Source: JBFLXN01 sp040755715 [NCBI: Candidatus Edwardsbacteria bacterium]
GTDB lineage: Bacteria; Edwardsbacteria; AC1; JBFLXN01
Assembly (NCBI GenBank): GCA_040755715.1
Contig: JBFLXN010000123.1
Span: 1 to 8,423 of the forward strand
Reading direction: 5' to 3'
DNA length: 8,423 nt
Shown: positions 3,909-8,412 of the stretch, piece after piece
Layout of the letters: the number at the start of each line of letters is the position of its first letter
Position numbering within the stretch: the first letter of the stretch is position 1
Notes under the pieces: generated by a model
What the model saw: the letters and a program-made list of their open reading frames with translations, nothing else
What the model was told of the DNA's origin: nothing
Database searches by the model: none
Program-made: the position numbers and the translations under genes

Positions 3909-4953
3909 GTAAAAAATGACCGCTGGTAGGTCTCAAGATGCCTTCTTCAGTAATAATCGCACTGATGAATTTCGCTGGGGTCACATCAAAGGCAGGGTTA
4001 AAAACATTAATCCCATCTGGAGTAATTTTTTTTCTTTTTACTCCTGCCCCCTTAGAAAATTTTTCTAAGGGGGTGAATGTAATCTCTTCCGCATTTCTTG
4101 TTTCAATTGGTATTTCCTTACCGTTTTTTAAATTCCAGTCAAAAGTAGAAGTCGGAGCGGCTACATAGAAAGGAATTTTGTGTGTTCTGGCTAAAATAGC
4201 TAAATTATAGGTACCGATTTTATTGGCAATATCACCATTACCAGCAATCCGGTCTGCACCAACAATCAGACAATCAATCTTTTTATTTTTCATTGTCCAG
4301 GCAGCCGCACTGTCACAAATCAGAGTTACCTCAATGTCTGTCTGTTTTAATTCCCAAGTAGTCAAGCGTGCTCCCTGTAAGAGTGGACGGGTTTCGGTTA
4401 CAATTACCGAAATTCTTTTTCCTTCTTGTTTGGCTTTGTAGATAATACCTAAAGCAGTCCCTATCCCGCCGGTAGCCAACATTCCAGTATTGCAGTGGGT
4501 AAGAACAGTAAATCCGTCTTTGATTAATTTTGCTCCATATCGGGCAATTTTTTCACATTTTTCTTTTTCTTCATTATGTATTATTAAGGCTTCATCTAAT
4601 AATTCTTTTTTAAGTTCTGCGAGAGATTTTTCCCTTCTTTTAACTATTTTCTCCATTCTTCCCAGTGCCCAAAATAGATTAACTGCTGTAGGACGACTCG
4701 CTTTGAATTTTTCAACTACCAAAGGAAACTCTGTCAAAAATCTTTCTTTGGTTTGCATATTTTTTATTCCTAAATAGACTCCGTAAGCAGCGACTATACC
4801 AATAGCTGGCGCTCCTCTCACCGCTAATTCATCTATTGCCTTTATCACTGATGGATAGGAATGACATCTGAGATATCGTATCCGTTGAGGCAATTGTCTC
4901 TGGTCTAAAATTTCTAAGGCATCGTTTTTCCATTGGAGAGATTGGGCAATCAT
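3883..4953 (-). CDS. mtnA: S-methyl-5-thioribose-1-phosphate isomerase
   Basis: A 356-residue cytoplasmic enzyme that converts methylthioribose-1-phosphate to methylthioribulose-1-phosphate in methionine salvage; relatives also act on deoxyribose-type salvage substrates. Family blocks appear in order: RGAPAIGIVAAYGV (46-59), RPTAVNLFWAL (87-97), THCNTGMLATGGIGTALG (152-169) with catalytic Cys154, TETRPLLQGARLT (186-198), and GADRIAGNGDIANKIGTY (232-249) with catalytic Asp234, then PFYVAAPTSTFD (261-272) and FNPAFDVTP (318-326). Its ATG overlaps the tsaD stop as ATGA, so translation is coupled. No other methionine-salvage gene is in the window. Residues about 294-303 (TPLEKFSKGA) are extra relative to the usual short loop between the EEVT and R-I-x-P-x-G blocks and are encoded by a perfect palindrome, so they look like an inserted repeat. 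The active-site motifs are intact and the enzyme is expected to work. Confidence 0.95.
   Translation of the reverse strand: MIAQSLQWKNDALEILDQRQLPQRIRYLRCHSYPSVIKAIDELAVRGAPAIGIVAAYGVYLGIKNMQTKERFLTEFPLVVEKFKASRPTAVNLFWALGRMEKIVKRREKSLAELKKELLDEALIIHNEEKEKCEKIARYGAKLIKDGFTVLTHCNTGMLATGGIGTALGIIYKAKQEGKRISVIVTETRPLLQGARLTTWELKQTDIEVTLICDSAAAWTMKNKKIDCLIVGADRIAGNGDIANKIGTYNLAILARTHKIPFYVAAPTSTFDWNLKNGKEIPIETRNAEEITFTPLEKFSKGAGVKRKKITPDGINVFNPAFDVTPAKFISAIITEEGILRPTSGHFLLDKVFRMV
4047..4073. repeat. Palindromic element inserted in frame in mtnA
   Basis: Arms CCCCCTTAGAAAA (4047-4059) and TTTTCTAAGGGGG (4061-4073) are perfectly complementary around a single T. The 27 bp encode nine residues (about 295-303) in a loop where MtnA relatives are shorter. 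The sense strand begins TTCACCC then TTAGA, as does the element in mnmA at 7703-7751, which suggests one family. Confidence 0.65.
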
Positions 4954-7005: not shown

Positions 7006-8175
7006 TTACTTTTTGCTTTCAATTATCCCCCCCCCAATCACTTCTTCTCCTCGGTAAAATACCACCGATTGGCCAGGGGTAATGGCTCGCTGAGGTTCAG
7101 CAAAGACAACTGATACTTTGTCTTTGGCTAAAGGAGTAATTGTGGCCAGAGTGGCCGGATGGAGATACCGAATCTTCACTTCTGCCTGAAAACTGTTTCG
7201 TGGCCCTACCCCCCTCAGCCAATTTAATTGGGAAGCAATCAATTTATTTTGATAGAGGTCTTTATCTTCACCCACATAAATTTGATTCTTTTCTCCATCA
7301 ATTCTTATGACATATAGAGGCTTACCAATAGCAATTCCTAAACCGCTTCTTTGCCCAATAGTATAAAAGGCAATTCCTTTATGTTCTCCAAGAATTTTCC
7401 CAGATTTATCAACTATTTGACCGGGGGAAACAGGATGAGTAGGGGCGTTAAATTTACCGCCCCTACTTCTTAAAAATTCTCCATAGTTATTATCAGGGAT
7501 AAAACAAATTTCTTGACTTTCTGCTTTATTAGCGGTCTTAAGTCCTAATTTTCTAGCTTTATTTCGCACTTCTTCTTTGGTCAGATTTCCTAAAGGAAAG
7601 AGAATGTTTGACATCGTCTTCTGAGTAAGGCCCCATAAGGCATACGATTGGTCTTTACTTCTGTCAACGCCTTTGAAAAGGCGGTATTGTTCACCATTTT
7701 TTACCCCATTAGAGAATGCTTCATTTCTCAAAAGGAGGTCTCTAACTGGGTGAACTATTCTGGCATAATGCCCGGTGGCTAAAAAATCAGCGCCCCAAGA
7801 TTTTGCTTTCTCTAAAACTTTTGAAAATTTGATTACCGTATTACAAACAATACAAGGGTTTGGGGTTTTCCCTTTCAGATATTCTTGACAAAAGTTTTCA
7901 ATCACTACTCTTTCAAATTCAAAAGACAGGTCTATTACATAATGAGGAATTTTCAATTTATCACAAACCGCTCTTGCGCCTTCAATTGCCTCAAACGAAC
8001 AGCAACTCTTTTCGTGAAGCTTAGAATTATGGTAACAAAAGAGGCGCATACTTACGCCAATAACTTCATATCCTTCTTCTTTTAACAAAGCGGCGGCTAA
8101 CGAACTATCCACACCACCTGACATCGCTACTACTACTTTTTTCATCACTTTTATTTCTTTAGACATTTCATACAA
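7006..8175 (-). CDS. mnmA: tRNA-specific 2-thiouridylase MnmA
   Basis: A 389-residue enzyme that adenylates U34 of Lys, Glu and Gln tRNAs and inserts sulfur to make s2U. The PP-loop AMSGGVDSS is at 17-25. PNPCIVCN (105-112) carries the first catalytic Cys (108) and SQEICFIP (220-227) the second (224). ATGHYARI (133-140), KDQSYAL (174-180) and GQRSGLGI (274-281) are also intact. The C-terminal beta-barrel ends with AEPQRAITPGQSVVFY. Two segments are extra relative to family members: residues 142-158 (HPVRDLLLRNEAFSNGV) and about 237-246 (SRGGKFNAPT). Each coincides with a palindrome in the DNA. The start is uncertain: ATGs at 8175, 8166 and 8145 all precede the PP-loop and none has a clear ribosome site; MKKVVVAMSGG at 8145 matches the usual family start best. 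Nine consecutive G near the 3' end (7027-7035) encode GGG. Confidence 0.95.
   Translation of the reverse strand: MYEMSKEIKVMKKVVVAMSGGVDSSLAAALLKEEGYEVIGVSMRLFCYHNSKLHEKSCCSFEAIEGARAVCDKLKIPHYVIDLSFEFERVVIENFCQEYLKGKTPNPCIVCNTVIKFSKVLEKAKSWGADFLATGHYARIVHPVRDLLLRNEAFSNGVKNGEQYRLFKGVDRSKDQSYALWGLTQKTMSNILFPLGNLTKEEVRNKARKLGLKTANKAESQEICFIPDNNYGEFLRSRGGKFNAPTHPVSPGQIVDKSGKILGEHKGIAFYTIGQRSGLGIAIGKPLYVIRIDGEKNQIYVGEDKDLYQNKLIASQLNWLRGVGPRNSFQAEVKIRYLHPATLATITPLAKDKVSVVFAEPQRAITPGQSVVFYRGEEVIGGGIIESKK
7439..7466. repeat. GTAGGGGCG palindromic element in frame in mnmA
   Basis: Arms GTAGGGGCG (7439-7447) and CGCCCCTAC (7458-7466) are perfectly complementary around ten AT-rich bases. It encodes residues 237-246, in a loop before PGQIVDKSGK where relatives have about eight fewer residues. 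Hairpins with GTAGGGGCG arms are, as I recall, common between genes in many environmental genomes; here one lies inside a gene. Confidence 0.6.
7703..7751. repeat. Palindromic element inserted in frame in mnmA
   Basis: Arms ACCCCATTAGAGA (7703-7715) and TCTCTAACTGGGT (7739-7751) pair at 11 of 13 positions around a 23-nt centre. The translated insert (residues 142-158) sits between ATGHYARIV and KNGEQYRLFKG, which would join directly into a normal MnmA. Outside the arms GTTCACC (7689-7695) and GGTGAAC (7749-7755) also form an inverted pair, perhaps part of the element or its target. Confidence 0.7.
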
Positions 8176-8299: not shown

Positions 8300-8350
8300 A
8301 GTGCTGTGTGACATAAATTCCGTAACTTTTTTCGGGAGTCACACAGCACT
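8300..8350. repeat. 51-bp element with 13-bp perfect terminal inverted repeats
   Basis: AGTGCTGTGTGAC (8300-8312) and GTCACACAGCACT (8338-8350) are exact complements around 25 nt. The interior begins TTCCG and ends CGGGA and resembles the next hairpin at 8380-8412 (TTCCGaAACTT...ACTTTCGGAA). No coding potential; MITE-like or a structured RNA element. Confidence 0.65.
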
Positions 8351-8379: not shown

Positions 8380-8412
8380 ATTCCGAAACTTGCCACTGGC
8401 AACTTTCGGAAT
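8380..8412. repeat. 33-bp hairpin repeat
   Basis: Arms ATTCCGAAACTTGCC (8380-8394) and GGCAACTTTCGGAAT (8398-8412) pair at 14 of 15 positions with an ACT loop. It is the third hairpin in a row upstream of mnmA, all within 113 bp. Confidence 0.65.

What the first reader, a model, noticed from the sequence alone, without database searches (positions are those of the whole stretch)
7703..7751. Palindromic element translated as a 17-residue insert in MnmA
HPVRDLLLRNEAFSNGV interrupts a conserved stretch that reads as normal MnmA if it is removed, and its DNA is an imperfect palindrome. Length is a multiple of three and the frame stays open. This is the behaviour of Rickettsia palindromic elements, but in an essential tRNA enzyme of a different kind of bacterium.
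Basis: partly seen in the sequence, partly recalled or inferred. Interest (0 to 1): 0.7.

Follow-up and report, generated by a model that had tools for sequence, protein, structure and literature searches.

The report
In-frame transposon fragment inside mnmA
A 51-base stretch inside a tRNA-modification gene is a tiny transposon-like repeat that added 17 amino acids without breaking the gene, and its relatives share their ends with a very small mobile-looking element whose only gene is a GIY-YIG DNA-cutting enzyme, an unusual partner for such repeats.

Summary
Window 7704-7750 is a 47-bp imperfect palindrome that adds 17 codons (HPVRDLLLRNEAFSNGV) to a loop of MnmA; none of 108 other MnmA proteins aligned has it. 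It belongs to a family with arms CCCCGTTAGA/TCTAACGGGG: 94 of 384 sampled Omnitrophota-phylum genomes carry it, against 2 of 384 for the reversed control, and 5 of 50 genomes of other groups. Copies are flanked by 4-bp direct repeats (45 of 114 exact, 11 expected) and one empty site is clean, so these are MITE-like. Another species' MnmA carries a separate in-frame copy elsewhere. The new part: the same ends frame ~265-336-bp elements whose only gene is a ~85-aa GIY-YIG nuclease (16 of the 30 best GIY-YIG loci, 9 with exact 4-bp repeats). IS200-like transposases show no link. The comparison with Rickettsia palindromic elements fits the behaviour, not the family. That the nuclease moves the elements is inferred. 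The window's own genome is not held, its own duplication is not intact, and its lineage is unresolved.

The parts
7704..7750 (.). MITE-like element core, arms 7704-7713 (CCCCATTAGA) and 7741-7750 (TCTAACTGGG)
   Evidence: sequence; family scan (2 mismatches to the consensus arms); copies in 94 of 384 genomes
7700..7703 (.). flanking tetranucleotide TTTA, probable left half of a decayed 4-bp target-site duplication
   Evidence: agrees with TGAA on the other side at 2 of 4 bases only
7751..7754 (.). flanking tetranucleotide TGAA, probable right half of the decayed duplication
7702..7752 (-). 51 bp translated as HPVRDLLLRNEAFSNGV in MnmA
   Evidence: AlphaFold model places it between strands 128-130 and 154-156 with block pLDDT 57 and 40
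7006..8175 (-). mnmA, tRNA 2-thiouridine(34) synthase, host gene
4047..4073 (-). probable second, diverged copy inside mtnA (CCCCCTTAGAAAATTTTTCTAAGGGGG), coinciding with about 11 extra residues (TPLEKFSKGAG region)
   Evidence: scan at 2 mismatches; gap of about 11 residues in the three solved MtnA chains shown; 27 + 4 bp is not a multiple of three, so less certain

Best explanation
The insert is a copy of a short non-autonomous transposon (MITE) with terminal inverted repeats CCCCGTTAGA and a 4-bp target-site duplication (preference YNNR, mostly TAAA/TGAA). It landed in a tolerant loop of mnmA; 47 bp plus 4 duplicated bases make 51 bp, so the frame was kept, and because two of three frames through the repeat are open (HPVR..SNGV and TPLE..LTG) the gene survived. 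The family's coding member is a ~265-336-bp element with the same ends whose only gene is a single-domain GIY-YIG nuclease; the short copies are taken to be internal-deletion or end-only derivatives mobilised in trans by that nuclease plus host ligation or gap repair. Shown: repeat family, ends, duplications, one clean empty site, in-gene copies, GIY-YIG genes framed by the ends. Inferred: that the nuclease does the cutting in transposition, that short copies derive from the GIY-YIG element in general (one deleted intermediate seen), and that all this holds in the window's own genome.
For: Family and spread: against 1 of 149 in the phylum of a Heliorestis genome (Bacillota by its label; control also 1 of 149). 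Direct 4-bp repeats: 44 of 113 vs 12 expected, 45 of 114 vs 11. Empty sites: L237 4221-4265 vs L233, TGAG once in the empty copy; L215 9922-9968 vs L268, L273 and L284, each with a 4-base overlap of the flanks. In-gene copies: 37 of 114 in a spanning ORF, 30 of these 37 with a length fitting a 3n gain, hosts including Der, MobA, a class V aminotransferase, GcvT, PolA, DnaG, UvrD and FeFe hydrogenase. Second MnmA hit in another species. GIY-YIG: 16 of 30 best loci framed by the ends (15 of 22 in repeat-rich, 1 of 8 in repeat-free genomes; the script's 17 includes L264, which is flanked by two separate short copies and is discounted here), against 73 of 20,000 random placements. All 11 elements of 265-336 bp with 12 or more matching end bases and at least 3 of 4 duplicated bases held GIY-YIG, but 10 of the 11 come from loci picked by the GIY-YIG search. 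Purifying selection on the nuclease: omega 0.06-0.19 in the 11 of 66 pairs with finite dS, all with dS above 1, so rough. L193 holds an internally deleted GIY-YIG between the ends.
Against: The window copy has no intact duplication (TTTA/TGAA) and imperfect arms. 69 of 114 copies lack an exact duplication. Having any GIY-YIG match at E 1e-3 does not differ: 36 of 40 repeat-rich and 35 of 40 repeat-free genomes; only strong matches to the query do (19 vs 3 at E 1e-20), and the query itself came from a framed gene in a rich genome. Four of 40 repeat-rich genomes (G265 with 18 copies, G353, G395, G417) gave no match at all. Only 30 of the 71 matching genomes were examined, one best locus each. 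A GIY-YIG domain is not known to join DNA strands (recalled). Other flank comparisons gave overlaps of 4 (L239 vs L251, L244 vs L242), 6 (L192 vs L048), 8 (L239 vs L233) and 14 (second L244 copy) and are not clean.
Confidence: 0.72

Rival explanations
1. Same MITE insertion, but the GIY-YIG gene is only a passenger or a parasite of the ends; an unidentified transposase acting in trans moves both.
For: GIY-YIG nucleases have no known strand-transfer activity (recalled); four of 40 repeat-rich genomes gave no GIY-YIG match and any-match counts do not differ between rich and repeat-free sets; the genomes are drafts, so another enzyme could be missed; only one other transposase family (Y1) was tested.
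Against: No ORF other than GIY-YIG was found between matching ends with duplications in the loci scanned, apart from pairs that span separate copies. The ends abut the GIY-YIG ORF so tightly that in 8 of the 12 framed genes read correctly the stop codon is the tetranucleotide directly outside the end.
Confidence: 0.22
2. A REP-type palindrome moved by an IS200-like TnpA_REP (Y1) transposase.
For: Short palindrome, many copies, interspersed; Y1 genes are common in these genomes.
Against: Y1 genes occur in 34 of 40 repeat-rich and 35 of 40 repeat-free genomes; 0 of the 30 best Y1 loci are framed by the ends; Y1 elements make no target duplication (recalled), whereas a 4-bp one is seen.
Confidence: 0.03
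3. Ordinary length variation of the MnmA loop after TGHYAR; the palindrome is coincidence.
For: The loop varies in length in other species (L042, L048, L096, L029).
Against: The DNA of the insert matches a dispersed repeat family at both ends with the expected 3n length; 0 of 300 mononucleotide shuffles of the window give the arms.
Confidence: 0.02

Closest known systems
Rickettsia palindromic elements (RPEs; Ogata et al. 2000, known here only through passages of review PMC10969869)
   Same: Palindromic repeats translated in frame inside unrelated genes.
   Different: RPEs are given as ~150 bp, ten families, with a conserved peptide; here mostly 29-55 bp cores, variable middle, 4-bp target duplication, many intergenic copies, GIY-YIG partner, other phyla. 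No RPE sequence was compared.
MITEs of insertion sequences (review PMC10969869, passages; general features recalled)
   Same: Short, non-coding, terminal inverted repeats, target-site duplication, many copies; one internal-deletion intermediate (L193).
   Different: The coding relative encodes a ~85-aa GIY-YIG nuclease and no recognised transposase.
GIY-YIG-encoding insertions in rRNA genes of CPR bacteria (PMC11270868, passages)
   Same: GIY-YIG genes in insertions that resemble neither group I nor group II introns; the authors judge their spread to be outside the context of homing.
   Different: Those lie in rRNA genes; the terms 'inverted repeat' and 'palindromic' do not occur in the held text, and short palindromic derivatives were not seen in the passages read.
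REP/REPIN with TnpA_REP (PMC8266576, PMC3116915; start of abstracts in the search listing)
   Same: Dispersed short palindromes thought to be moved in trans.
   Different: No link with Y1 transposases here, and a target duplication is present.
Casposons (PMC4046053, passages)
   Same: Prokaryotic elements with inverted repeats and target duplications whose enzyme is not a classical transposase; one carries a GIY-YIG gene.
   Different: Polymerase- and Cas1-encoding; GIY-YIG is an accessory gene there.

Membership tests
MITE | short non-coding element with terminal inverted repeats | tested here: met
   114 copies with cores 26-71 bp (search limited to 24-75), arms CCCCGTTAGA; longer ones 83-176 bp
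MITE | target-site duplication of fixed length | tested here: met
   4 bp; 45 of 114 exact vs 11 expected; 5-mers abutting the arms are not among the enriched offsets; one clean empty site. Not intact in the window copy
MITE | shares ends with a coding element | tested here: met
   GIY-YIG elements
MITE | moved by the partner's enzyme | not testable with these tools
   needs a transposition assay
Rickettsia palindromic element | in-frame insertion in protein-coding genes | tested here: met
Rickettsia palindromic element | ~150 bp size and a conserved peptide | tested here: not met
   mostly 29-55 bp; only the ends HPVR/SNGV or TPLE/LTG are conserved, middle variable; RPE size
Rickettsia palindromic element | sequence relation to RPE families | not tested
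   no RPE sequence was compared
REP moved by TnpA_REP | association with a Y1 transposase | tested here: not met
   34 of 40 vs 35 of 40 genomes; 0 of the 30 best Y1 loci framed by the ends
GIY-YIG nuclease (PF01541), for the partner protein | profile match and conserved catalytic-type residues | tested here: met
   E 1.6e-16 for the L190 protein; invariant Y..G, R and E columns in 12 proteins; which residues are catalytic is recalled

The most novel reading that the evidence does not exclude
A new kind of DNA transposon: ~265-336 bp, terminal inverted repeats, 4-bp duplications, and a single ~85-aa GIY-YIG nuclease as its only enzyme, whose stop codon is often the flanking tetranucleotide (TGAA/TAAA), and which has seeded uncultured bacterial phyla with tiny palindromic derivatives that insert in frame into core genes such as mnmA. 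Other GIY-YIG genes framed by different ends (L155, L279, L289) suggest a whole class.
Probability: 0.5. Interest if true: 0.9.

Novelty: new variant of a known kind. Interest (0 to 1): 0.75.

Why it matters
If a lone GIY-YIG nuclease can drive a transposon-like element, it would add a transposition system without any of the usual transposase types (recalled: DDE, Y1/HUH, serine and tyrosine enzymes), in a very small package. It could explain the recurring peptide inserts (HPVR..SNGV, TPLE..LTG) in proteins of uncultured phyla, offers a testable model for how selfish DNA becomes new protein segments, including at the start of prepilin genes, and would suggest a non-homing route for the GIY-YIG insertions reported in CPR rRNA genes.

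Tried and rejected
Whole-genome count of copies for the window: impossible, no genome held. Placing the window organism: MnmA is at most about 55% identical to anything found; among the loci held at that time only L008 has mtnA near mnmA and no other gene of the window is shared; the MnmA tree gives no starred set that holds the window. Pattern of the window element in viral contigs: 0; first arm pattern: 0; looser arm pattern: 20 stretches. GIY-YIG query in plasmid and phage collections: none at E 1e-5. Y1 transposase as partner: rejected. A hairpin serving as RNA structure: weak (z -1.94). Duplication longer than 4 bp: not supported. Sister-species comparison G003/G002 for a clean empty site: not clean. 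GIY-YIG presence as such as the correlate: not supported, 36 of 40 vs 35 of 40 at E 1e-3; only close relatives of the query and the framing ends differ. Frame statistic: 30 of 37 vs 37 of 77 (Fisher p 0.001) is partly circular because a frame-breaking copy would not count as inside an ORF; the less circular figure is 67 of 114 over all copies against one third expected. Paper searches for a bacterial GIY-YIG transposon, for Omnitrophota palindromes or for palindromic elements in genes listed no GIY-YIG transposon of bacteria; lists were capped, and subscription journals and preprints are not in that library.

Full report
Observation. The minus-strand gene at 7006-8175 is mnmA. Its segment HPVRDLLLRNEAFSNGV is coded by 7702-7752, whose DNA is an imperfect palindrome, core 7704-7750. 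In an alignment with 108 other MnmA proteins from many phyla (80 and 28 of 30; two short rows dropped) only the window has it; the surrounding TGHYARIV/KNGEQY is continuous in the others. The site is a loop of variable length. A model from 25 sequences (mean pLDDT 85) puts the insert between strands 128-130 and 154-156 with low confidence, which fits an exposed loop.

Family. Three Omnitrophota loci among the 80 MnmA loci held clear relatives of the palindrome, one of them inside MnmA itself but at another place: L042 reads RV-HPVKSSDITSGEFAIGELFNRV-KVKF near the C-terminus. A pattern of the two arms hit 94 of 384 genomes drawn from that phylum, up to 46 copies per genome, while the same pattern read backwards hit 2 of 384. 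In 50 genomes of other groups it hit 5 (control 0): one Elusimicrobiota, two Nitrospinota, one Chloroflexi and one Latescibacterota MAG; misbinning is possible for some. In the phylum of that Elusimicrobiota genome it hit 4 of 5; in the phylum of a Heliorestis genome (Bacillota by label) 1 of 149 with control 1 of 149. An identical 29-mer occurs in G018 and G265 of the Omnitrophota sample, the Elusimicrobiota and the Chloroflexi genome, which suggests horizontal spread; 20 viral-contig stretches also carry perfect copies.

Anatomy. The four bases outside the arms are a direct repeat in 45 of 114 copies against 11 expected, 46 of 65 perfect-armed copies match at 3 or 4 of 4, and 5-mers abutting the arms are not among the enriched offsets. 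Target preference is YNNR, TAAA and TGAA most of all. A paralogous empty site on another contig of the same genome shows it cleanly: CATTATGAG[45 bp]TGAGCATT against CATTATGAGCATT; three homologues of a hit GIY-YIG gene give a 4-base overlap as well. Other flank comparisons overlapped by 4, 6, 8 or 14 bases and are not clean. Just inside the fixed arms, bases differ between copies but stay complementary within a copy (36 of 41 longer copies at the first variable position, 19 expected).

In genes. 37 of 114 copies lie in a spanning ORF, 77 do not. The 37 copies fall in 34 ORFs, of which 25 have a Pfam match; eight copies lie inside the matched domain. Hosts include Der, MobA, a class V aminotransferase, GcvT, DNA polymerase I, DnaG, UvrD, PrmC, a diphthamide synthase-like protein and an FeFe hydrogenase. 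With the 4-bp duplication the net gain is 3n for 30 of 37; over all copies 67 of 114. The first number is partly built in by requiring an open frame. Two frames are open through the repeat (HPVR..SNGV 22, TPLE..LTG 14 of 37; one copy in the third, with altered arms). The window's mtnA has a likely second copy at 4047-4073, matching about 11 residues absent from the three solved chains shown.

Coding partner. Looking between inverted arms, L215, L190 and L193 showed a small GIY-YIG gene, or part of one, framed by the same ends. Searching 40 repeat-rich and 40 repeat-free genomes with the L190 protein gave strong matches (E at most 1e-20) in 19 and 3, but any match at E 1e-3 in 36 and 35, so it is the close relatives that differ; the query came from a rich genome. 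One best locus was examined for each of 30 of the 71 matching genomes. My script found the ends on both sides in 17 of these 30; in L264 they belong to two separate short copies, leaving 16: 15 of 22 from rich and 1 of 8 from repeat-free genomes. Random placements gave 73 of 20,000. Exact duplications occur in 8 as first delimited, 9 with the outer end of L273. In 8 of 12 ORFs read correctly, the stop codon is the tetranucleotide right outside the end; five of 17 were misread by the script. All 11 intervals of 265-336 bp with matching ends and at least 3 of 4 duplicated bases hold GIY-YIG, 10 of them from loci picked for GIY-YIG; the 17 under 200 bp have no ORF over 55 residues, and one of them is the deleted GIY-YIG of L193; of four longer ones three span separate copies and the fourth (L273, 764 bp) looks like one GIY-YIG element inside another. 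The nuclease is conserved by selection, roughly estimated. Y1 transposases show no association.

Interpretation. The window insert is best read as a MITE of this family that slipped into a tolerant loop of mnmA in frame. That it is the same family is shown by its ends; its own duplication is decayed. That the GIY-YIG protein moves the family is inferred from the shared ends and the absence of other genes between them; how a nuclease alone would achieve joining is open, and host ligation of a 4-base staggered cut is my guess. Four repeat-rich genomes without any GIY-YIG match (G265, G353, G395, G417) are unexplained, although the assemblies may be incomplete.

Known work. The review PMC10969869 (passages) describes Rickettsia palindromic elements as an unusually frequent case of in-frame intragenic elements; PMC11270868 (passages) reports GIY-YIG genes in CPR rRNA insertions that are not introns and seem not to spread by homing. 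Searches listed no bacterial transposon whose sole protein is GIY-YIG; the lists were capped and the library is partial. I therefore rate the window feature as a new variant of a known kind, and the GIY-YIG system as possibly a new kind.

Noticed in passing
window 8301-8349 and 8380-8412: Two further palindromes just upstream of mnmA: GTGCTGTGTGAC..GTCACACAGCAC (seen) and ATTCCGAAACTTGCCA/TGGCAACTTTCGGAAT. An exact 25-base piece of the first is in none of 292 loci.
   Followed up: partly
L155 5637-5789, L289, L279 and L280: Small GIY-YIG genes framed by other inverted ends (CCCCCACACCAATTAT, CCCCCACACCAACTCC, ACCCGCTCAACTTTTTGGATAT), suggesting sister families; the flanks printed for L279 and L280 are identical although they come from two genomes.
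   Followed up: partly
L215 9815-10150 and 10583-10632; L230 9931-9985: Elements sit directly before the GFTLIEL-type prepilin start, giving LTGFTLIEL-like fusions; one brings a whole GIY-YIG ORF in frame with the pilin.
   Followed up: partly
L242 10000-10330: A gene fragment resembling GxxExxY proteins (label recalled) lies between ACCACAGATTAACACAG-type inverted repeats near two 36-bp copies, perhaps another nuclease-repeat pairing.
   Followed up: no
L288, L290, L291, L292, L233: More distant GIY-YIG genes lie beside what look like tRNA genes with a piece of the tRNA repeated on the other side; tRNAs were not predicted with a tool.
   Followed up: no
L257 3848-3994 and L260 4213-4359: 147-bp elements with ends TGCCGTTACAACT and exact 4-bp duplications carry a 44-bp copy of the present family inside them: nested insertion.
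   Followed up: no
L273 1268-2031: A 764-bp interval with ends TCCCGTTAGACCTC and duplication TTCA holds a second framed GIY-YIG element, as if one GIY-YIG element had inserted into another.
   Followed up: no
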